64,000 bases of DNA, from NCBI RefSeq assembly GCF_003111665.1, contig NZ_CP022188.1, positions 1,550,001-1,614,000 on the forward strand. The letters run 5' to 3'. Position numbers and translations under genes: made by a program. Position 1 is the stretch's first letter. Each line of letters starts with the position of its first letter. Under the pieces are notes generated by a model that made no database searches, was not told where the DNA came from, and worked only from the letters and a program-made list of their open reading frames with translations. Positions 8,803-39,195 of this stretch are shown piece by piece. The stretch is from Parazoarcus communis (lineage in GTDB: Bacteria; Pseudomonadota; Gammaproteobacteria; Burkholderiales; Rhodocyclaceae).

Positions 8803-9855
8803 CTACCAGTCAACTAAGCTAATACCGAGACCAATGGCGTTTTTGCGAAAGTTGTAATCGATCAAGCTTTCACCGTATCCGCTGAAAATCTGCATATAGC
8901 CTTTAAGATAGCCTGAAATCGGGAAGGTCCACTCGAACATACCCGATCCGTGATTCGTCTTCTCGCTGAAACGCAGCGAATGGCGCAACGTAAGGGCAAA
9001 ATTGTGATCTCCCAGTCTGCGGTTAATTAGCAACTCGCCACGACCAACGTAATCCTCGATATCCGGATTGTCATCCTCGCCCGCCTCCTCCTTAATGCGA
9101 TGCCACGCTTGTACAGCGACAACCCAGTCGTCTTTCTGTAGGGCAACGAAAGCGGGGATCCGGTTCCAGCTACGAGAGAGGGGGTCGGCTCGACCGTTCG
9201 ACTGATGGTTTAAACCGAACCCCACCATCGACGCTTTCCAGCCGAAGAAATCGTAGTCCATCGCGTAGGTCATCAGGATTTCAGGCTCATAGTTCGTCTC
9301 ACGGAACGGGCGGCTGATGTCACCATTGTAAACTTGCCAACGTGACGACTGGGTATAGGCTGCCCAGATATCGCCCTTGCCATCAAAAAGCCCTGTGACA
9401 AGCTTAGTCTTGAAGCTCAGCTGGTATTTGCCCTCGGTGCTGTCTAGATTAACCGGGTTCGTGACGCAGCTACGGCCCCCTGCCGCACTGCACGGTGCCT
9501 CGTTCACCTTTGTGCTGTGAAAGACTGGCATGAAATAAATAGGCTTATAGGGCTGTAAGGTGAACACCGGGTGTTTGGTCTCTGGGGAGAGTTCCCAGCG
9601 GGAGTCGAGCAAGGTTACGCCCTGGGCGGTTGAGCCGAACGGCCGTTGCTGCTCAGATTCCGGCATGGACTTAATAGCGGATTTCAAAGCTCCTTCCGGA
9701 GCACTACGACCCACTTTACGATCGTAGCAGGCAAGCCGTTGGTTTCCATTCTCGATTCCAACACAATCGCCGACGCCTTGAGATCGAACCGCTCCCGACA
9801 GGGCTAGCAAACTCGATCCAACCAGCAACGCCCGAGAAAATCGAGCTACCTTCAT
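8803..9855 (-). CDS. pldA: Outer membrane phospholipase A
   Basis: OMPLA hydrolyses phospholipids that reach the outer leaflet of the outer membrane, keeping lipid asymmetry. The 350-residue protein has a signal peptide (basic start, LLVGSSLLALSGAVRSQG). The catalytic signature NHQSNGRADPLSRSWNR provides His, Ser and the conserved Arg/Asn pattern of the family. The C-terminus, with GYGESLIDYN and an aromatic-ending last strand, is typical of an outer-membrane barrel. The 80-residue segment before the barrel (DCVGIENGNQRLACYD) is common in longer beta-proteobacterial PldA. Start ATG 9855 is preceded by GAGGAAG at proper spacing; an ATG at 9882 has no site. Part of the island's envelope cargo. 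Confidence 0.93.
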   Translation of the reverse strand: MKVARFSRALLVGSSLLALSGAVRSQGVGDCVGIENGNQRLACYDRKVGRSAPEGALKSAIKSMPESEQQRPFGSTAQGVTLLDSRWELSPETKHPVFTLQPYKPIYFMPVFHSTKVNEAPCSAAGGRSCVTNPVNLDSTEGKYQLSFKTKLVTGLFDGKGDIWAAYTQSSRWQVYNGDISRPFRETNYEPEILMTYAMDYDFFGWKASMVGFGLNHQSNGRADPLSRSWNRIPAFVALQKDDWVVAVQAWHRIKEEAGEDDNPDIEDYVGRGELLINRRLGDHNFALTLRHSLRFSEKTNHGSGMFEWTFPISGYLKGYMQIFSGYGESLIDYNFRKNAIGLGISLVDW

Positions 9856-25339: not shown

Positions 25340-26115
25340 TGACCTGCTCCAGGCTTTTCGGGCCAGCTGAAACTTGAGAGGATGGCTTCCAGAGAAAAGA
25401 GGAAGTCATGCGCAAGAGCCGTTTTACAGAAGAACAGATGGTCAAGATCCTGCGGGAGGCCGACCGCACGCCGGTCGCGGATGTCTCAAACAAGCACGTA
25501 GTGAGCGAGCAGACGATCTATACGTGGCGCAAGCGCTTCGGCGCCATGAGCTCGAACGAGGTCAAGCGACTGCGGCAGCTGGAGGCCGAGAACGCGCGGC
25601 TCAAGAAGATGCTGGCCGAGCGGGATCTGGAGATCGACGTGATGAAGGAGATCACGGCAAAAAAATGGTGGCGAGGCGCTGGCGATCGACGTCGCGGGCA
25701 GCATCCGCTCGGAGCGCGTCTTCGATGTCTTGAGCCGCTTGATCAGCGAACGCGGAGCGCCGAAAGCATTGCGCTCGGACAACGGCCCGGAGTTCGTCTC
25801 GACGCGGTTGCTCCAGTGGGCGACCGATGAGGGATTGCAAATGGCGCTGTCGCAGCCGGGCAAGCCATGGCAAAACGGCACCGACGAGAGCTTCAACGGC
25901 AAGTTCCGCGACGAGTGCCTATCCATGGAATACTTTCGCAACCGCCTTGAGGCACGCGTCGTCATCGAGCAGTGGCGCCGTCGTTACGACGAAGTACGAC
26001 CGCATTCTGCGCTGGGATACCTGACCCCGGCGCAGTACGTTCAGAACCAGTCAGGCAACGACCACGAGGCCATCCGTCTCAAGTAACTCGTGGTCCGAAG
26101 AATCGGGGCAGGTCA
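25340..26115 (+). mobile_element. Second IS3-family element, 776 bp, internally deleted
   Basis: The ends TGACCTGCTCC (25340) and, reversed, TGACCTGCCCC (26115) form imperfect inverted repeats. OrfA is nearly whole from ATG 25408 (MRKSRFTEEQMVKILREADR, RLKKMLAERDLEIDVMKEI) up to the A-rich frameshift site near 25660. The first part of OrfB is deleted; it resumes as ALAIDVAGSIRSERVFDVLS and keeps NGPEFVS, then KPWQNGTDESFNGKFRDECL to the stop at 26086. The flanks show no target duplication. It sits immediately upstream of cas3, so cas3 may use a promoter near the IS end. Nothing is recognised in 25135-25339. Confidence 0.85.
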
Positions 26116-26252: not shown

Positions 26253-26291
26253 ATGAGTGACAACTTATCGCCGTTTTGGCGTGTTCCGTGA
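26253..26291 (+). CDS. Possible 12-codon leader peptide ahead of cas3
   Basis: ATG 26253 opens MSDNLSPFWRVP, and its TGA (26289-26291) shares a base with the cas3 ATG (TGATG), an arrangement that often couples translation. AAGGAAAA upstream at about 26230 is distant. The peptide could also be a chance frame. Confidence 0.25.
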   Translation: MSDNLSPFWRVP

Positions 26292-28543
26292 TGGCTTACT
26301 ACGCGCATTCCACGCCGAGCGTGGATAAATCCGATTGGCAAAGCCTAGCGGAGCATCTTCATAGCGTCGGCAAGATTGCCGGTAAGAACGCGGCGACCTT
26401 CGGCGCTTCAACATTGGCTGAGGTAGCCGGGTTACTTCACGATCTCGGCAAGTATTCGGAAGACTTTCAACGACGCATCGCGGGGAATGCGATTCGTGTT
26501 GATCACGCCACCCGAGGTGCGATGATCGCTGCAGAGCGCTTCGGCCCGATCGGCATGTTGCTCGCCTATGGCATCGCCGGCCATCACGCAGGTTTGGCGA
26601 ACGGAGCTGAGGGCGGTGAACGCACGGGACTTCGCGACCGCATGAAGGGCATCGGCTTACCGCCGCTGAAGGACGACTGGGCACAGGAGATATTCCTGCC
26701 GGAGCAACTGCACGCACCGAAACTCTTGCTCCACAAAGAGCGCAGCATGTTTCAGTTCGCATTCCTTGCGCGCATGCTGTTCTCCAGCCTGGTGGATGCC
26801 GACTACCTCGATACCGAGGCCTTTTACGATCGGGTCGCCCCTCCCGGACAGCCCAACGACCGCAACGCATCGCGCGCGCTCGAAGTCCCCTCCCTGCAAG
26901 CGTTGCGCGAGCGCCTCGATACTCATCTTTTGGGCTTCACAGCCGACTCCGACGTCAATCGCATCCGCGCGGACATTCTCGCCTATACGCGCCAAGCCGC
27001 GCAGCATGCGCCCAGCCTATTCTCGCTCACGGTACCGACCGGCGGTGGTAAGACGCTTGCCTCGCTCGCCTTCGCGCTCGATCACGCGATTAAGCATGGG
27101 CTGCGGCGGGTGATCTTCGTGATTCCCTTCACCAGCATCGTCGAGCAGACCGCTGCGGTATTCCGTTCCGCGCTGAGCGATCTGGGCGAAGCGGCGGTGC
27201 TTGAACACCACAGCGCCTTCGTCGCAGCGCCACTTCCGCGCTCGGACGCCGAGCGTTACCAGGCCCGGGAAAAACTGCGGCTGGCGATGGAGAACTGGGA
27301 TGCACCCATCGTCGTCACCACAGCAGTGCAGTTCTTCGAGAGTCTGTTCGCGGCACGCCCGTCGCAATGCCGCAAGCTGCACAACATCGCCGGCAGCGTG
27401 GTCATCCTCGACGAGGCGCAGACCCTGCCGCTGAAGCTGTTACGGCCGGCGGTCGCGGCCATCGACGAACTGGCCCGGAACTACCGCAGCAGCGTCGTCC
27501 TGTGCACAGCCACCCAGCCGGCCTTGAACGCGCCGGATTTTCGCGGCGGACTGGAGAACGTGCGTGAACTCGCCCCGAATCCGCCGGAACTCTTCCGCAA
27601 GTTGGACCGGGTACGTGTGCGCCATGTCGGCACGCTCGACGATGACGCGCTCGCGGCGCAACTCCGCGATCTCGATCAAGTGTTGTGCATCGTCAACAAC
27701 CGCCGCCACGCCCGCGCCCTGTATCAGGCACTCGCCTACCAACCCGGCGCGCGCCACCTGACCACGCTGATGTGCGCCAAGCATCGCAGCCAGGTGCTCG
27801 CCGAGGTACGGGTACGCCTCAAGGCCGGTGAGCCCTGCCGGCTGGTGTCGACGTCGCTGATCGAAGCCGGCGTCGACATCTCGCTGCCCACCGTCTACCG
27901 CGCCGAAGCCGGCCTGGACTCAGTCGCCCAGGCGGCCGGGCGTTGCAACCGCAACGGCGAGCGCGCAGCGGAGCTGAGCGAGGTGCGCGTGTTCGGCACC
28001 GCCAACAGCGACTGGGCACCGCCGCCGGAACTGCGCCAGTTTGCCCAGGCCGCGCAGGAGGTCATGCGCCAGCCGCGGTTCCGCGACGATCCGCTGTCGC
28101 CGTCCGCGATCGAAGCCTACTTCCGACTCCTTTACTGGCAGAAAGGCGACAAGGAACTGGATGCCGCTAACCTGCTTGGCCTGTGCGCGGAAAGCCGCAT
28201 CGATTCCCTGCCGTTGGAAACGCTGGCGGCCAAGTTCCGCATGATCGACACCGTGCAGATGCCGGTGATCGTACCCTTCGACGACGACGCCCGCGAGTAC
28301 CTGAAGAGCCTGCATCACGTGGACAAGAGCGGCGGCCTCGCACGCAAGCTGCAGCCGTATCTGGTGCAGTTGCCGCGCAACGGCTTCGATGCGCTGCGCA
28401 AGGCGGGCGCGATTCAGCCGGTTGCGCCGGAGAGATGGGGGGAACAGTTCATGGAACTGGTGAACGAAGACTTGTACAACCAACATTCTGGGCTGTCTTG
28501 GGACGATCCTTCCTTCCTAAGCACAGAGCGACTGCTTTGGTGA
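26291..28543 (+). CDS. cas3: CRISPR-associated nuclease-helicase Cas3, type I-C
   Basis: Cas3 is recruited by Cascade bound to target DNA, unwinds it and degrades one strand. The 750-residue protein has an N-terminal HD nuclease (HLHSVGK near 22-28, LLHDLGK with His50-Asp51, later GIAGHHAGL). The superfamily 2 helicase follows: Walker A PTGGGKT near 249, DEAQ near 373, CTATQ motif III, and the arginine-finger motif VI QAAGRCNR near 546. All catalytic motifs look intact. ATG 26291 is preferred over a TTG at 26276. It heads the locus in the usual I-C order but is separated from cas5c by about 500 bp holding a promoter and a crRNA-like unit, so cas3 and the effector operon may be expressed separately. 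Confidence 0.97.
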   Translation: MAYYAHSTPSVDKSDWQSLAEHLHSVGKIAGKNAATFGASTLAEVAGLLHDLGKYSEDFQRRIAGNAIRVDHATRGAMIAAERFGPIGMLLAYGIAGHHAGLANGAEGGERTGLRDRMKGIGLPPLKDDWAQEIFLPEQLHAPKLLLHKERSMFQFAFLARMLFSSLVDADYLDTEAFYDRVAPPGQPNDRNASRALEVPSLQALRERLDTHLLGFTADSDVNRIRADILAYTRQAAQHAPSLFSLTVPTGGGKTLASLAFALDHAIKHGLRRVIFVIPFTSIVEQTAAVFRSALSDLGEAAVLEHHSAFVAAPLPRSDAERYQAREKLRLAMENWDAPIVVTTAVQFFESLFAARPSQCRKLHNIAGSVVILDEAQTLPLKLLRPAVAAIDELARNYRSSVVLCTATQPALNAPDFRGGLENVRELAPNPPELFRKLDRVRVRHVGTLDDDALAAQLRDLDQVLCIVNNRRHARALYQALAYQPGARHLTTLMCAKHRSQVLAEVRVRLKAGEPCRLVSTSLIEAGVDISLPTVYRAEAGLDSVAQAAGRCNRNGERAAELSEVRVFGTANSDWAPPPELRQFAQAAQEVMRQPRFRDDPLSPSAIEAYFRLLYWQKGDKELDAANLLGLCAESRIDSLPLETLAAKFRMIDTVQMPVIVPFDDDAREYLKSLHHVDKSGGLARKLQPYLVQLPRNGFDALRKAGAIQPVAPERWGEQFMELVNEDLYNQHSGLSWDDPSFLSTERLLW

Positions 28544-28570
28544 ACGTTCGTTGAGCTATTGGATAAACTT

Positions 28571-28606
28571 GTTCATTGAACTGTTAGCTGAAAGCGATGA
28601 TATAAT
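28571..28606 (+). promoter_or_regulatory. Promoter overlapping a PAM-flanked pseudo-protospacer
   Basis: TATAAT at 28601-28606 is preceded by TG (TGATATAAT, an extended -10), and TTGAAC lies at 28576-28581 (19-bp spacing). Bases 28572-28574 are TTC, the known PAM of type I-C. The 22 bases after it (28575-28596) match the pseudo-spacer at 28892-28913 at 20 of 22 positions; the mismatches are positions 6 and 15. A Cascade bound here would cover the -35 and reach the -10. The promoter reads toward a structured leader, the solitary repeat and cas5c. Confidence 0.75.
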
Positions 28607-28612
28607 TTGACG

Positions 28613-28860
28613 GCATCCCCATTGTCTGTGTACGCTAGCTACGAAATGGCGAAGACCCCGGTGTCTGCCAACACCGAGGCCTTCAAGTAGCAACCGCTGC
28701 CACGCGGCAGAGCTAGCGTCTGGGGCTAGTAAGGAGGGCTCGTATATGGCTAGAACCCATATGACCCTGATAGGAGATTGAACTCAATCACCCACGACTC
28801 AACTCGCACCTCGCCTGCCAATCAAGGTGCGTTTGAACTGTACCGTACTTTGCAGTTCTC
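28613..28860 (+). ncRNA. Structured leader with mini-ORFs; candidate CreT-like toxin RNA
   Basis: Downstream of the promoter the RNA would fold strongly. A 9-bp outer stem pairs 28632-28640 (ACGCTAGCT) with 28711-28719. It encloses a 14-position hairpin (28651-28664 with 28671-28684, 12 pairs) and a small CTGCC/GGCAG hairpin near 28698-28710. After it, AAGGAGG (28731-28737) stands 8 bases before ATG 28746, which opens MARTHMTLIGD, stop at 28779-28781. This mini-ORF contains AGA at codon 3 and ATA at codon 9, both rare in a GC-rich genome. A second mini-ORF, MAKTPVSANTEAFK (28646-28690), has no good ribosome site. Known CreT toxins are mini-ORF RNAs with rare Arg codons next to the start. The alternative is a plain untranslated leader of the cas operon. 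Confidence 0.45.
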
Positions 28861-28957
28861 GTCGCACCTCCGTGGGCGCGTGGATTGAAACATTGAGCTG
28901 TTAGCCGAAAGCGTTTGATGAAACCGTGCCTCCGGCAGGTGATCTTGTCGGAGGCAC
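28861..28957 (+). ncRNA. Solitary degenerate CRISPR repeat with pseudo-spacer: crRNA-like guide (CreR/CreA type)
   Basis: Bases 28861-28891 are a 31-nt variant of the array repeat. The last 21 bases (CGTGGGCGCGTGGATTGAAA plus C) are identical, so the Cas5c processing handle is kept; the 5' half has two substitutions and one missing base. The stem can still form with one mismatch and one G-T pair. The next 34 bases (28892-28925) have normal spacer length. A perfect 9-bp hairpin GTGCCTCCG/CGGAGGCAC (28926-28957) then stands where a second repeat would be. The first 22 bases of the pseudo-spacer match the promoter site at 28575-28596. Partial matches of this kind let Cascade bind without Cas3 cleavage, as known for CreA and CreR RNAs. 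Confidence 0.75.
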
Positions 28958-29040
28958 TACCCAGAAGAGCAGCCTTGTCGTTAACTGCGTCGAGCACGTT
29001 CGCGACATACGCACAGCCCGATTTGGGAGGGAGGGTGTCA

Positions 29041-29715
29041 ATGAGCTACGGAATCCGCCTGCACGTCTGGGGCGATCGGGCCTGCTTCACGCGGCCGGAA
29101 ATGAAGGTGGAGCGGGTGAGCTACGACGTCATCACGCCGTCGGCCGCGCGCGGCATCCTGGAGGCCATTCACTGGAAGCCGGCGATCCGCTGGGTGGTGG
29201 ATCGCATCCATGTGCTCAAGCCGGTGCGCTTTGAATCCATCCGTCGCAATGAGGTTGGCAGCAAGCTGTCACCCGGCAACGTGAGCAGGGCGATGAAGGC
29301 GGGCACCACCGCCGGGCTGGCGACCTATGTCGATGAAGACCGCCAGCAGCGTGCCGCCACGGTGTTGCGCGACGTGGCCTACGTGATCGAGGCCCACTTC
29401 GAACTCACCGACAAAGCCGGGCCGGACGATTCGGTGGGCAAGCATCTGGACATTTTCAACCGCCGCGCCCGCAAGGGGCAGCACTTCCACGCCCCCTGCC
29501 TGGGCGTGCGCGAGTTTCCCGCCCATTTCAGCCTGATCGAGGACGGCCAGCCGCTGCCCGACGCGCACCCCGCACGCGATGCGGACAAGGACTTGGGCTG
29601 GATGCTGCACGACATCGATTTCGCCCGGGACATGACGCCGCGCTTCTTTCGCGCGCAGTTGAAGGCAGGCGTGATCGAGGTGCCGCCATGGCAGGGCGAG
29701 GGGGTCAAGTCATGA
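29041..29715 (+). CDS. cas5c: Cas5c (Cas5d), pre-crRNA endoribonuclease of type I-C
   Basis: In type I-C there is no Cas6; Cas5c cuts the repeat RNA and stays on the 5' handle as part of Cascade. The 224-residue protein starts MSYGIRLHVWGDRACFTRPE, the usual Cas5d N-terminus. It has the conserved MKVERVSYDVITPSAARGIL and the IHWKPAIRW segment, and a glycine-rich C-terminal part around HAPCLGVREFPAHF. ATG 29041 follows GGGAGGGAGGGTGTCA, a strong ribosome site; an upstream in-frame extension to 28915 runs through the crRNA-like unit and is rejected. Its stop overlaps cas8c (ATGA). First gene of the effector-adaptation operon. Confidence 0.97.
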   Translation: MSYGIRLHVWGDRACFTRPEMKVERVSYDVITPSAARGILEAIHWKPAIRWVVDRIHVLKPVRFESIRRNEVGSKLSPGNVSRAMKAGTTAGLATYVDEDRQQRAATVLRDVAYVIEAHFELTDKAGPDDSVGKHLDIFNRRARKGQHFHAPCLGVREFPAHFSLIEDGQPLPDAHPARDADKDLGWMLHDIDFARDMTPRFFRAQLKAGVIEVPPWQGEGVKS

Positions 29716-34442: not shown

Positions 34443-35852
<1,410 letters not shown>

Positions 35853-35892
35853 AACAAACTGAGGTAGGTCGTCAATCGTGGAGTCCAACGGA

Positions 35893-36798
35893 TTAAGCTG
35901 CCATCTGTTTTGCATAGTACTGCTGACTGAAAGCGGCAGGTGAGAGATAGCCAAGGCGTGCCTGCTTGCGTATGCGGTTGTAAAAGATCTCGATGTATTC
36001 GGTGATCTCACGCCTCGCCTGCTCGCGGGTGGCATAGGATTGGTGATGGACCAGTTCGTTCTTCAGAGAACCCCAGAAGCTTTCCATCGGGGCATTGTCC
36101 CAGCAGTCCGCCTTGCGACTCATTGATGCGCGCATGCCGAATTGCCGCAGCGATGTCTGATAGGTGTACGCGCAATACTGACTGCCGCGATCCGAATGGT
36201 GAATCAGCCCTTTGGTCGGTCGCTTCGCGACGACTGCTCGGAATAATGCTTTCGTAACCAGCTCTTTGGTCATCCGCTCAGCCATGGCGTAGCCGACCAA
36301 TTCGCCGTTGAACAAATCCTTGACGCCAGCAAGGTATAGCCAGCCCTCATCGGTCGCAATGTAGGTGATGTCGGCCACCCAAGCCCGATTGGGCGCTGCC
36401 ACATCAAATTGACGATCCAGCAGATTAGGCGCCAGCGGCAGTGAATGATTCGAATTCGTTGTCGCCTTGAATTTGCGTTTCTGCTTGCAACGCAGTCCCA
36501 GCTTTGTGCGTAACCTTTTGATGCGATACACGCTGGCCGGGATGCCGTGATCCGCAAGATCTGATTGCAGGCGTTGTGGCCCGTAGGTTTCTCGTGTGCG
36601 TCGATGCGCAACCTTGATCTCGGTCTCCAGGTGCGCATTCTCTTGCGCCCGTAACGAGGGTGGGCGTTGGCGCCAGGCGTGATAGCCGCTCTCCGAAACA
36701 CTCAGCAGCCGGCACATCACCGCCACAGGGTGGTGTAGTCGCAGTTGGTCAATCTGTGCGTACTTCACCGCGACTCCTTCGCGAAATACGCCGCACAT
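35893..36798 (-). CDS. IS3-family transposase OrfB (copy 1)
   Basis: The 301-residue product carries the rve/DDE integrase core: Asp in WVADITYIATDEGWLYLAGV, Asp in HHSDRGSQYCAYTY, Glu in APMESFWGSLKNEL. The N-terminal part has the HTH_21-like RETYGPQRLQSDL segment. It is normally made as an OrfAB fusion by a -1 frameshift on the A7 run shared with OrfA. ORF intact. Confidence 0.95.
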   Translation of the reverse strand: MCGVFREGVAVKYAQIDQLRLHHPVAVMCRLLSVSESGYHAWRQRPPSLRAQENAHLETEIKVAHRRTRETYGPQRLQSDLADHGIPASVYRIKRLRTKLGLRCKQKRKFKATTNSNHSLPLAPNLLDRQFDVAAPNRAWVADITYIATDEGWLYLAGVKDLFNGELVGYAMAERMTKELVTKALFRAVVAKRPTKGLIHHSDRGSQYCAYTYQTSLRQFGMRASMSRKADCWDNAPMESFWGSLKNELVHHQSYATREQARREITEYIEIFYNRIRKQARLGYLSPAAFSQQYYAKQMAA

Positions 36799-37067
36799 TT
36801 TTTTAGCAGATCGCGCTCCAGCTTCACTTCCGCCAATTCCTTGCGCAATCGCGCCAGCTCAACTTCCGTCTCTGTCGGCAACCGTTGGCCTTGCCCCACT
36901 TTGGCAAGCTTGCCCGCACGCGAGGCCCTGACCCAGTTGCCAAGACTGCTCTTCGGCACCGAAAGGCGCTTGGCCGCTGCATCCACCGAAAGCCCTTCTG
37001 CCTCCACCAACTTCACTGCTTCCGCCCGAAATTCCGGCGTGTAAATCCCTTTCGGCATCCGTTCCAT
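36765..37067 (-). CDS. IS3-family transposase OrfA (copy 1)
   Basis: The 100-residue helix-turn-helix protein (MERMPKGIYTPEFRAEAVKL, then SVDAAAKRLSVPKSSLGNWV) ends in a leucine zipper (ELARLRKELAEVKLERDLLK). It binds the IS ends and regulates OrfAB. ATG 37067 follows GGAGG at good spacing. The frameshift site CTAAAAAAATG lies near its end. Confidence 0.93.
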   Translation of the reverse strand: MERMPKGIYTPEFRAEAVKLVEAEGLSVDAAAKRLSVPKSSLGNWVRASRAGKLAKVGQGQRLPTETEVELARLRKELAEVKLERDLLKKCAAYFAKESR

Positions 37068-37158
37068 GTGCGTCCTCCGTTCGTGCAATTTTACAAAACG
37101 TTGGACTCCATTTTTTTCAGCCTACCTCAAACTGCAGGTGCGCATCTGATGGGCATTA

Positions 37159-37718
<560 letters not shown>

Positions 37719-37802
37719 GTTGACGTGCGGTATCGCGTTTTGAGGTAGGCTGAAAAAAATGGAGTCCAACGTTTTGTAAAATTGCACGAACGGAGGACGC
37801 AC

Positions 37803-38105
37803 ATGGAACGGATGCCGAAAGGGATTTACACGCCGGAATTTCGGGCGGAAGCAGTGAAGTTGGTGGAGGCAGAAGGGCTTTCGGTGGATGCAGCGGCCAA
37901 GCGCCTTTCGGTGCCGAAGAGCAGTCTTGGCAACTGGGTCAGGGCCTCGCGTGCGGGCAAGCTTGCCAAAGTGGGGCAAGGCCAACGGTTGCCGACAGAG
38001 ACGGAAGTTGAGCTGGCGCGATTGCGCAAGGAATTGGCGGAAGTGAAGCTGGAGCGCGATCTGCTAAAAAAATGTGCGGCGTATTTCGCGAAGGAGTCGC
38101 GGTGA
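37803..38105 (+). CDS. IS3-family transposase OrfA (copy 2)
   Basis: Identical in sequence to OrfA of copy 1 (100 residues, MERMPKGIYTPEFRAEAVKL to YFAKESR). GGAGG precedes ATG 37803; an upstream in-frame ATG at 37782 lacks a site. It overlaps OrfB in the frameshift region. Confidence 0.93.
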   Translation: MERMPKGIYTPEFRAEAVKLVEAEGLSVDAAAKRLSVPKSSLGNWVRASRAGKLAKVGQGQRLPTETEVELARLRKELAEVKLERDLLKKCAAYFAKESR

Positions 38106-38977
38106 AGTACGCACAGATTGACCAACTGCGACTACACCACCCTGTGGCGGTGATGTGCCGGCTGCTGAGTGTTTCGGAGAGCGGCTATCACGCCTGGCGC
38201 CAACGCCCACCCTCGTTACGGGCGCAAGAGAATGCGCACCTGGAGACCGAGATCAAGGTTGCGCATCGACGCACACGAGAAACCTACGGGCCACAACGCC
38301 TGCAATCAGATCTTGCGGATCACGGCATCCCGGCCAGCGTGTATCGCATCAAAAGGTTACGCACAAAGCTGGGACTGCGTTGCAAGCAGAAACGCAAATT
38401 CAAGGCGACAACGAATTCGAATCATTCACTGCCGCTGGCGCCTAATCTGCTGGATCGTCAATTTGATGTGGCAGCGCCCAATCGGGCTTGGGTGGCCGAC
38501 ATCACCTACATTGCGACCGATGAGGGCTGGCTATACCTTGCTGGCGTCAAGGATTTGTTCAACGGCGAATTGGTCGGCTACGCCATGGCTGAGCGGATGA
38601 CCAAAGAGCTGGTTACGAAAGCATTATTCCGAGCAGTCGTCGCGAAGCGACCGACCAAAGGGCTGATTCACCATTCGGATCGCGGCAGTCAGTATTGCGC
38701 GTACACCTATCAGACATCGCTGCGGCAATTCGGCATGCGCGCATCAATGAGTCGCAAGGCGGACTGCTGGGACAATGCCCCGATGGAAAGCTTCTGGGGT
38801 TCTCTGAAGAACGAACTGGTCCATCACCAATCCTATGCCACCCGCGAGCAGGCGAGGCGTGAGATCACCGAATACATCGAGATCTTTTACAACCGCATAC
38901 GCAAGCAGGCACGCCTTGGCTATCTCTCACCTGCCGCTTTCAGTCAGCAGTACTATGCAAAACAGATGGCAGCTTAA
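38072..38977 (+). CDS. IS3-family transposase OrfB (copy 2)
   Basis: Identical to OrfB of copy 1 (301 residues) with the same DDE residues. Expected to be translated mainly as OrfAB by frameshifting at the A7 run near 38068-38074. An intact pair of identical elements suggests recent transposition within this strain. Confidence 0.95.
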   Translation: MCGVFREGVAVKYAQIDQLRLHHPVAVMCRLLSVSESGYHAWRQRPPSLRAQENAHLETEIKVAHRRTRETYGPQRLQSDLADHGIPASVYRIKRLRTKLGLRCKQKRKFKATTNSNHSLPLAPNLLDRQFDVAAPNRAWVADITYIATDEGWLYLAGVKDLFNGELVGYAMAERMTKELVTKALFRAVVAKRPTKGLIHHSDRGSQYCAYTYQTSLRQFGMRASMSRKADCWDNAPMESFWGSLKNELVHHQSYATREQARREITEYIEIFYNRIRKQARLGYLSPAAFSQQYYAKQMAA

Positions 38978-39026
38978 TCCGTTGGACTCCACGATTGACG
39001 ACCTACCTCATTTTGCCTTGGACTGA

Positions 39027-39195
39027 GTCGCGCCCCGCGTGGGCGCGTGGATTGAAACGTCCAGTTGTCGCTTGAGCACTTCGATGTTCTCTGGTCGCGC
39101 CCCGCGTGGGCGCGTGGATTGAAACATCAGCGGCAAGATCGGCTATGAGGCGCAGCTTGGTCGCGCACCTCTCACGGGGTGCGCGTGGATTGAAC
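39027..39195 (+). CRISPR. CRISPR array, leader-distal block ending in a degenerate repeat
   Basis: Two perfect repeats (39027, 39094) and a 36-bp terminal variant at 39160-39195. The variant keeps GTCGCGC at the start and GCGCGTGGATTGAA near the end but has a different middle, which still forms a hairpin (GCGCACC with GGGTGCGC), and has lost one A of the GAAAC tail. Degenerate last repeats mark the oldest end of an array. Confidence 0.95.

What the first reader, a model, noticed from the sequence alone, without database searches (positions are those of the whole stretch)
28571..28957. Type I-C crRNA-like guide aimed at a promoter inside its own cas locus
Seen: a solitary degenerate repeat (28861-28891) keeps the 3' 21 bases of the array repeat exactly and is followed by a 34-nt pseudo-spacer and a hairpin. 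The first 22 nt of the pseudo-spacer match 28575-28596 at 20 of 22 positions. That site has TTC directly 5' of it, the established type I-C PAM, and overlaps TTGAAC and an extended -10 TGATATAAT. The position-6 mismatch is at a base type I crRNAs leave unpaired and would also be a G-T wobble. Known: CreA and CreR RNAs use partial matches so that Cascade represses promoters without cleavage. Inference: this RNA represses either the cas5c-cas2 operon (autoregulation) or a toxin RNA encoded between (CreTA). If it is a toxin pair, loss of Cascade would kill the cell, making the CRISPR locus addictive.
Basis: partly seen in the sequence, partly recalled or inferred. Interest (0 to 1): 0.95.

Follow-up and report, generated by a model that had tools for sequence, protein, structure and literature searches.

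The report
CRISPR-guided toxin switch, type I-C
Inside this bacterium's type I-C CRISPR locus sits a tiny CRISPR-like guide aimed at a promoter next to it, which probably keeps a toxic small RNA switched off as long as the CRISPR machinery works; related loci carry the same kind of device with different contents.

Summary
A solitary repeat (28861-28891) and pseudo-spacer match a TTC-flanked site (28575-28596) at 20 of 22 positions; it is the only exact TTC+seed place in the 4.89-Mb genome. In 41 related loci with such a handle, chosen without regard to targets, 33 have a TTC-flanked match of at least 8/10 seed positions in their own locus, against 26 of 1596 cross-locus controls; positions 6 and 12 are not conserved. 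Four orthologues keep guide, target and TTC; in L187 guide and target changed together. Between them lies a conserved RNA with a 5' hairpin, a strong Shine-Dalgarno and a start codon that can pair with codon 5 (AUG-CAU; GUG-CAC in L187), the pairing that the Acinetobacter I-F CreT toxin needs. Folding predicts this stem only partly (0.43 in the window). Best reading: a CreTA toxin-antitoxin module in type I-C. The cas3-cas5c gap is a swap slot: a locus 92% identical on both sides holds another guide, target and a small hydrophobic protein. Nothing was tested experimentally. The papers seen place CreTA in I-B and I-F; key papers and supplements were not held.

The parts
26276..28543 (+). cas3 (HD + helicase); its last 26 codons lie inside the swapped cassette
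   Evidence: NCBIfam cas3_HD 4.3e-30, PADLOC Cas3c 2.8e-225; cassette border at 28465
28572..28574 (+). TTC, PAM of the target
   Evidence: present in the 4 orthologues
28575..28596 (+). target (protospacer) of the guide; a full 34-nt protospacer would end at 28608
   Evidence: 20/22 match; only exact TTC+seed place in the genome
28607..28636 (+). probable creT promoter: TTGACG (28607-28612), 18 nt, TACGCT (28631-28636)
   Evidence: TTGAC-N17/18-TA, 32-44 nt after target start, in 8 of 8 class-A loci; control 17 of 4000; below threshold of the promoter scan
28651..28684 (+). 5' hairpin (H1) of the putative creT RNA
   Evidence: 13 pairs counted, 2 with change on both sides; in the predicted folds
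28731..28738 (+). Shine-Dalgarno AAGGAGGG
   Evidence: GGAGGG invariant in the window and 4 orthologues
28746..28781 (+). mini-ORF of putative creT: ATG GCT AGA ACC CAT ATG ACC CTG ATA GGA GAT TGA
28744..28762 (+). possible start-codon hairpin (H3): AUG with CAU of codon 5, 7-nt loop
   Evidence: 6 pairs possible in 5 of 5, AUG-CAU to GUG-CAC in L187; predicted pair probability only 0.43
28805..28831 (+). stem-loop downstream of the mini-ORF (H4)
   Evidence: predicted; stems of other sequence at a like place in L117, L184, L185, L187 by eye
28861..28891 (+). psi-R1: solitary degenerate repeat of putative creA (gives the 5' handle)
28892..28925 (+). psi-S: pseudo-spacer (guide) of putative creA
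28926..28957 (+). hairpin in the place of a second repeat (psi-R2-like)
28466..29040 (+). whole swappable cassette (cas3 tail, target, promoter, creT, creA)
   Evidence: 92% DNA identity to L113 on both sides, no match inside
29041..29715 (+). cas5c, first gene of cas5c-cas8c-cas7-cas4-cas1-cas2
   Evidence: NCBIfam Cas5c 4.3e-55
34627..39146 (+). CRISPR array, 30 repeats, interrupted by two IS copies

Best explanation
The cas3-cas5c gap holds a CreTA-type toxin-antitoxin module run by the type I-C Cascade. creA (28861-28957) would be processed by Cas5c into a crRNA-like RNA; with Cas5c, Cas8c and Cas7 it binds the TTC-flanked site 28575-28596 by a partial match too short for Cas3 to destroy the DNA, and so blocks the adjoining promoter. 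That promoter drives creT, a small RNA whose strong Shine-Dalgarno and start-codon hairpin engage ribosomes and jam translation. If Cascade is lost or blocked by an anti-CRISPR, creT is made and the cell stops or dies. Shown by sequence: guide, target, PAM, co-variation, conserved RNA signals, cassette swapping. Inferred: transcription, processing, repression, toxicity.
For: Own-locus TTC+seed matches of at least 8/10 in 33 of 41 loci vs 26 of 1596 controls; 10/10 in 21 of 41 vs 0 of 1596 (the earlier hand-made set gave 28 of 35 vs 19 of 1186). Match frequency 0.94-1.0 at positions 1-5, 0.24 at 6, 0.88-1.0 at 7-11, 0.30 at 12, 0.73-0.82 at 13-17. Single exact place in the genome. Orthologues L117, L184, L185, L187 keep handle, TTC and seed; L187 changed seed in guide and target alike. 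SD invariant, start-codon pairing possible in 5 of 5 with AUG-CAU to GUG-CAC. PMC10097628 (sections 11 and 12 and passages seen): the I-F CreT needs an SD and AUG in a stem with pairs 1-15, 2-14, 3-13, 4-12, has a 7-nt loop, and stays toxic with G1-C15. The same pairs and loop length are possible here. Promoter-like TTGAC-N17/18-TA after the target in 8 of 8 class-A loci vs 17 of 4000 shuffled windows.
Against: No RNA, repression or toxicity data. The start hairpin is not a firm prediction: mean probability of its three start-codon pairs is 0.43 in the window, 0.06-0.42 in L117, L184 and L185, 0.38-0.98 in L187, 1.00 in L043 and L059, 0.00 in L051; the lowest-energy fold of L117 lacks it. SD-plus-start-hairpin sites also turned up at 16 other places in 3.3 Mb of fetched sequence. 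In the I-F CreT a transversion at loop position 9 abolished toxicity; its base 9 is C and the window's is A. Eight of 41 loci lack a TTC-flanked match; four of these have a TTT-flanked one, the other four (L053, L083, L091, L186) none. The 41 loci include close relatives. The RNA model recovers L043 but not L051 or L059, which I put in class A by eye. A like RNA with ACG for AUG lies away from CRISPR in G006. No promoter passed the scan. The window RNA folds no better than shuffles (z -0.32 and -1.64), though L117, L051 and L059 do (z -3.8 to -4.8).
Confidence: 0.67

Rival explanations
1. CreR-type autoregulation: the guide represses a promoter that serves the cas5c-cas2 operon, and the RNA between is only a leader.
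For: The promoter points at cas5c and the scan of 28400-29100 found no terminator. L041 has guide and target but, by eye, no SD or mini-ORF, so a toxin-free form exists in the slot. CreR is named for I-B, I-E and V-A (PMC13131331, passage).
Against: SD, start-codon pairing and 5' hairpin are conserved, with three compensated pairs, which a plain leader does not need. 55 of the 100 loci labelled for the tree have a gap of at most 113 nt and no guide in it (L081 has one further upstream), so cas5c does not generally need a promoter there.
Confidence: 0.15
2. [quoted passage not shown]
For: The mini-ORF has AGA and ATA, both rare here (2.6 and 3.7 per 1000 of 16090 codons in 34 window ORFs). L043, L051 and L059 have AGG AGA, AGA AGA and AGA ATA. 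Known for haloarchaeal CreT (PMC8501985, passages and Discussion seen). The start hairpin, the alternative, is only partly predicted.
Against: In orthologues AGA becomes GGA (L184) or AAA (L187), and the codons after codon 7 and the stop vary, while SD and start-codon pairing stay. The two rare codons in the window are not consecutive.
Confidence: 0.13
3. A decayed minimal CRISPR or self-targeting remnant without function.
For: The repeat is degenerate and the guide matches its target only in part.
Against: Positions 6 and 12 are free while 1-5, 7-11 and 13-17 are kept across 33 loci; guide and target changed together in L187; other guides in sister cassettes fit their own targets.
Confidence: 0.05
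4. The mini-ORF product, an 11-residue peptide, is the active toxin.
For: Nucleotides of codons 1-7 are nearly fixed in window, L117, L184 and L185.
Against: Residues differ in L184 and L187, length and stop vary, and the compensatory start-codon pair concerns RNA, not peptide.
Confidence: 0.05

Closest known systems
CreTA of Acinetobacter WCHA45, type I-F (PMC10097628; passages and sections 11-12 seen)
   Same: Intergenic cassette after cas3; repeat-like sequences around a guide; partial match with PAM; SD plus mini-ORF (33 bp there, 36 bp here, 33 bp in L117); start codon able to pair with the CAU of codon 5; 7-nt loop sharing U6, A7, G8 and C11.
   Different: Type I-C; creA runs the same way as creT (divergent there); the guides here follow the ordinary seed rule, the I-F one does not; loop base 9 differs (A for C); a conserved 5' hairpin.
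CreTA of Haloarcula hispanica and Halobacterium hubeiense, type I-B (PMC8501985; passages and Discussion seen)
   Same: TTC PAM and seed 1-5 and 7-11 (H. hubeiense); degenerate repeat(s) giving the 5' handle; mini-ORF with strong initiation; stem-loop after it.
   Different: Bacterial I-C; no consecutive rare codons in the window; possible start-codon hairpin.
CreR (Liu et al. 2023, not held; passages of PMC13131331 and PMC12737573 seen)
   Same: crRNA-like RNA in the cas locus with partial match to a local promoter.
   Different: Named for I-B, I-E and V-A; no toxin. L041 is the nearest case here.
CrePA (PMC12737573, section 10 read)
   Same: Cascade-repressed protein toxin; the small hydrophobic proteins of sister cassettes could work alike.
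   Different: CreP typically has a KilA-N domain; the sister proteins are about 50 residues; the four sent to Pfam had no match above cut-off.

Membership tests
CreTA | ectopic degenerate repeat(s) beside the cas genes that keep the 5' handle | tested here: met
   3' 21 bases of the repeat exact; a hairpin stands in the place of the second repeat
CreTA | guide partly complementary to a PAM-flanked site at the toxin promoter | tested here: met
   20/22 with TTC; a TTGAC promoter-like pattern starts 32 nt after the target start; the promoter itself is predicted, not mapped
CreTA | guide and target co-vary in relatives | tested here: met
   L187 against window, L117, L184, L185
CreTA | toxin RNA with strong translation-start signals | tested here: met
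   SD invariant and start codon kept (AUG, once GUG) in window and 4 orthologues
CreTA of the I-F kind | start codon held in a hairpin stem | tested here: inconclusive
   pairs possible in 5 of 5 with one compensation, but predicted probability 0.06-0.98
CreTA | CreT is toxic and CreA with Cascade represses it | not testable with these tools
   needs experiment
CreR | no toxin between target and guide; a cas promoter is the target | tested here: inconclusive
   a conserved RNA lies between, but its toxicity is untested and read-through into cas5c is not excluded
CrePA | protein toxin between target and guide | tested here: not met
   the conserved RNA holds only an 11-residue mini-ORF; the most hydrophobic other ORF found in the gap has 25 residues and is not membrane-like
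type I-C CRISPR-Cas | cas3-cas5c-cas8c-cas7-cas4-cas1-cas2 with I-C repeat | tested here: met
Racr / viral solitary repeat unit (PMC10651486, passages seen) | solitary repeat in a viral genome, apart from cas genes | tested here: not met
   lies inside a complete cas operon and has a guide-target pair

The most novel reading that the evidence does not exclude
In proteobacterial type I-C systems the cas3-cas5c gap is a dedicated cassette slot. Complete Cascade-repressed units (guide, target, promoter, payload) are swapped there as one piece, and the payloads are of several unrelated kinds: translation-start RNAs, a loose family of about 50-residue proteins with one hydrophobic stretch, and short basic peptides. 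Together they would be interchangeable tripwires against loss or anti-CRISPR inhibition of Cascade.
Probability: 0.55. Interest if true: 0.86.

Novelty: new variant of a known kind. Interest (0 to 1): 0.75.

Why it matters
If true, CRISPR-addiction modules are not rarities of haloarchaea and Acinetobacter but a regular, swappable part of a widespread CRISPR subtype. A translation-start RNA toxin would then occur in two subtypes, with natural variants (GUG-CAC for AUG-CAU) that repeat mutants tested in the laboratory. The slot also gives a simple way to find new Cascade-repressed toxins: read what lies between cas3 and cas5c.

Tried and rejected
Autoregulation only and tRNA sequestration: kept as rivals, less likely. 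Rfam: no match up to E 5 for 28400-29100. Viral origin of the RNA: two patterns from its core have 0 exact matches in viral contigs. GIY-YIG nuclease as another occupant (L036, L039, L180, L191): motif seen by eye only; Pfam gave no match for L180, the one tested. L203 as a further creT: rejected, a terminator-like stem after a gene. Modules elsewhere: in the 80 named loci and the window, 13 solitary handles lie outside the 700 nt before cas5c; two, both in L081, have a TTC-flanked match of 9/10 or more.

Limits of the counts. One search used 35 loci chosen; one search had picked among candidate handles by target score, which favours matches (L083 and L152 for example), and duplicates L144 and L146 were dropped. 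therefore repeated the test on 41 loci with handles chosen by similarity alone (at most 1 mismatch, within 420 nt of cas5c, plus strand only), leaving out L112, L144, L146, L188 and loci whose Cas5c is under 35% identical, and leaving known relatives out of the controls; L059, L063 and L073 do not meet that rule. Minus-strand handles had no control. Slot labels for the tree were set by hand for 100 loci; unclear ones were left out (for example L074, L079, L083, L086, L090, L093, L107, L127, L134, L151, L152, L153, L157). Of the 25 loci labelled small-protein, 22 have an ORF with a hydrophobic stretch (mean Kyte-Doolittle at least 1.6 over 17 residues); L145, L092 and L103 do not reach it; of 8 class-A loci and L041, none does.

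Full report
What was checked first. The window holds a complete type I-C operon: cas3 26276-28543, cas5c 29041-29715, then cas8c, cas7, cas4, cas1 and cas2 (PADLOC Cas3c, Cas5c and Cas8c). The array downstream has 30 repeats from 34627. The solitary repeat, pseudo-spacer, TTC-flanked partial match and following hairpin are at the stated places. TTC plus guide positions 1-14, leaving 6 and 12 free, occurs once in the window against 0 of 100 shuffles and once without mismatch in the whole genome; the next places have two mismatches, one of them being the guide itself. The genome has 4,886,933 bases and five held genomes in its genus including itself; an IS match to two Thauera plasmids at 81% hints at the Rhodocyclaceae, which is a weak inference. 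A search of the four sister genomes with the intergenic region found nothing.

Related loci. Searches of 150 and 395 genomes of the family (overlapping), 369 of the class and 398 of the phylum gave more. Over 131 loci, the window among them, the gap between the upstream ORF and cas5c, by an automatic rule, was at least 100 nt in 50 and shorter in 81. In the long gaps a solitary handle like GTGGATTGAAAC is common, with the 5' half of the repeat degenerate.

Is the guide-target match real? In one search handles were chosen by likeness to a repeat end alone, without looking at targets: 41 loci. The bases after each handle were taken as guide and compared with TTC-flanked sites on both strands of the same locus. 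At least 8 of the 10 positions 1-5 and 7-11 matched in 33 of 41, all 10 in 21 of 41. For the same guides against the other loci, known relatives left out, the figures were 26 of 1596 and 0 of 1596. With TTT also allowed: 37 of 41 against 47 of 1596. Matching was 0.94-1.0 at positions 1-5, 0.24 at 6, 0.88-1.0 at 7-11, 0.30 at 12, 0.73-0.82 at 13-17, then 0.45, 0.48, 0.30, 0.61 at 18-21 and 0.18-0.33 at 22-24. Sites were chosen on positions 1-5 and 7-11, so the fall at 6 is what free bases give; the contrast between 12 and 13-17, which played no part in the choice in this call, is the informative one. Position 18 cannot be told from the general fall. Every sixth base free is what Cascade-bound crRNA shows (established knowledge) and is hard to get from mere duplication. 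An earlier hand-made set of 35 gave 28 of 35 against 19 of 1186. The 41 loci include close relatives, so they are not 41 independent cases. Handles on the other strand with a TTC-flanked match of at least 8/10 were found in L086, L099, L127, L151 and L157 (no control); in L134 only the handle was seen, by eye.

The closest orthologues. L117, L184, L185 and L187, all of the window's family, carry the same module as the window. In the window, L117, L184 and L185 the seed reads ATTGA.CTGTT in guide and target; in L187 it reads AGTGA.GTTCT in both. TTC and TTGAC are kept.

What lies between target and guide. The five sequences share a hairpin at the 5' end, an invariant GGAGGG, and a start codon that can pair with codon 5. 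Of 19 pairs counted, 95.8% of 95 cells pair, against 26-52% when slid; three pairs changed on both sides, all in L187 (10 of 500 shuffles reach this; five sequences only). One is the first base of the start codon with its partner: AUG-CAU in four, GUG-CAC in L187. The loop has 7 nt in all five. PMC10097628 (sections 11 and 12 and passages seen) reports that the bactericidal Acinetobacter I-F CreT needs a Shine-Dalgarno, a start codon in a 5-bp stem with pairs 1-15, 2-14, 3-13 and 4-12, and a 7-nt loop in which transversions other than at C11 abolish toxicity; a G1-C15 pair keeps toxicity, and U5 may be C. From its text codon 2 is TTT and codon 3 AGC, so its loop shares U6, A7, G8 and C11 with the window, which has C5. 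Against this, base 9 is C there and A here, a change of the kind that killed toxicity there. Nor is the stem a firm prediction: the three start-codon pairs have a mean probability of 0.43 in the window, 0.06-0.42 in L117, L184 and L185, 0.38-0.98 in L187, 1.00 in L043 and L059 and 0.00 in L051, depending on the stretch folded. A scan for SD plus start hairpin over 3.3 Mb of fetched sequence found window, L117, L043 and L059 and also 16 other places, one of them (L087) in the slot. So the likeness to the I-F toxin is strong in layout and compensation, weaker in predicted stability, and its action is inferred.

Rare codons. AGA in codon 3 becomes GGA in L184 and AAA in L187, and the end of the mini-ORF varies, so sequestration of rare tRNAs, the haloarchaeal mechanism (PMC8501985), is less likely here, although AGA and ATA are rare in this window. 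L043, L051 and L059 have adjoining rare codons and might act in that way. A covariance model of the five recovers L043 (E 5e-11) but not L051 or L059 among 76 sources.

Promoter. In 8 of 8 class-A loci (window, L117, L184, L185, L187, L043, L051, L059) TTGAC, 17 or 18 nt, then TA begins 32-44 nt after the target start; the rule is met in 17 of 4000 base-shuffled windows. In the window this is 28607-28636. Neither promoter passed the consensus scan.

The slot. Window and L113 have Cas5c proteins 98% identical; DNA identity is 92% up to 28465 and again from 29041, with no BLAST match in between. L113 holds a different guide, a target on the other strand and a 46-residue protein with one hydrophobic stretch. 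On a Cas5c tree of 100 loci, labels for slot content set by hand (8 translation-start RNA, 25 small protein, 3 short basic peptide, 4 other ORF, 5 guide only, 55 nothing) need 38 changes, against a shuffled mean of 41.1 (14 of 200 shuffles as low). The tree is a FastTree with 36 of 96 inner branches weak; well-supported branches alone force at least 14 changes for small protein and 6 for RNA. The window's seven-row clade (support 99) holds one RNA, three small-protein, one other-ORF and two empty loci. Of the 25 small-protein loci 22 have a clearly hydrophobic ORF, and none of 8 class-A loci or L041. Nine of the proteins align as a loose family; four sent to Pfam had nothing above cut-off (two weak matches at E 0.08-0.1), and three sent to PADLOC had no match.

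How rare is this RNA? A core pattern hit 1 of 369 genomes of the class, the window's own, and two versions hit no viral contig. In 249 genomes of the family the model matched 11 at E up to 0.001: G000, G089 and G530 (I-C loci used to build it; G650 and G750, the other two, do not appear, and whether they were searched is not shown), G006 strongly, and seven weakly, of which I looked at one and judged it a terminator-like stem. The G006 copy has ACG in place of AUG; in the 19 kb around it there is no array or handle and no ORF that I recognise as cas (by eye), and G006 had no Cas5c match.

Novelty. In the listings shown by searches I saw no paper on CreTA, CreR or CrePA in type I-C; 'I-C' does not occur in the main text of PMC8501985, PMC9458426, PMC10097628, PMC12737573 or PMC12948488. 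PMC13131331 (passage) names I-B, I-E and V-A for CreR. The founding Science paper with its predicted bacterial modules, the CreR paper and the CrePA paper did not appear among the papers found, so an earlier I-C listing cannot be excluded.

Verdict. A CreTA-type module in a type I-C locus is the best reading; the guide-target part is strongly supported, the toxin part rests on analogy and conservation.

Noticed in passing
L113, L114, L179, L116, L118, L038, L040, L054, L066 (cas3-cas5c gap): Same guide-target architecture, but the payload is a 46-54-residue protein with one hydrophobic stretch; of these nine, the four sent to Pfam had no match above cut-off. Possibly a new Cascade-repressed membrane toxin family.
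   Followed up: partly
L087, L098, L099 (cas3-cas5c gap): Third payload kind: short basic peptides beginning MRRxR or MARRK, in alphaproteobacteria; in L099 the whole module is inverted.
   Followed up: partly
L212 about 9440-9580, minus strand (G006): RNA of the same shape as creT, with ACG for AUG and a compensated stem, between a 151-aa ORF and a transposase-like ORF, with no CRISPR seen in 19 kb.
   Followed up: partly
window 28547-28563: A second, weaker TTC-flanked likeness of the target (TTCGTTGAGCTATTGGA) 25 bases upstream of the main one; perhaps a decayed duplicate.
   Followed up: no
window 35860-37129 and 37741-39010: Two copies of an IS with an integrase-core transposase, in opposite orientation, inside the CRISPR array; another transposase ORF lies upstream of cas3 (25408-26086). 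The cas ORFs are uninterrupted.
   Followed up: partly
L041 9745-10000: Guide and TTC-flanked target but, by eye, no SD or mini-ORF between; looks like an autoregulatory (CreR-like) or toxin-less form.
   Followed up: partly
L081 2781 and 2947: Two solitary handles with the same guide and a TTC-flanked match, 740-906 nt before cas5c rather than in the usual gap.
   Followed up: no
L181 and L188 (G740): Two Cas5c-encoding stretches about 500 bases apart, one partial; a duplication in the cas operon.
   Followed up: no
L180, L191, L036, L039: The slot holds an ORF of about 100 residues with a GIY-YIG-like start (by eye; no Pfam match for L180, the only one tested) and no guide found.
   Followed up: partly
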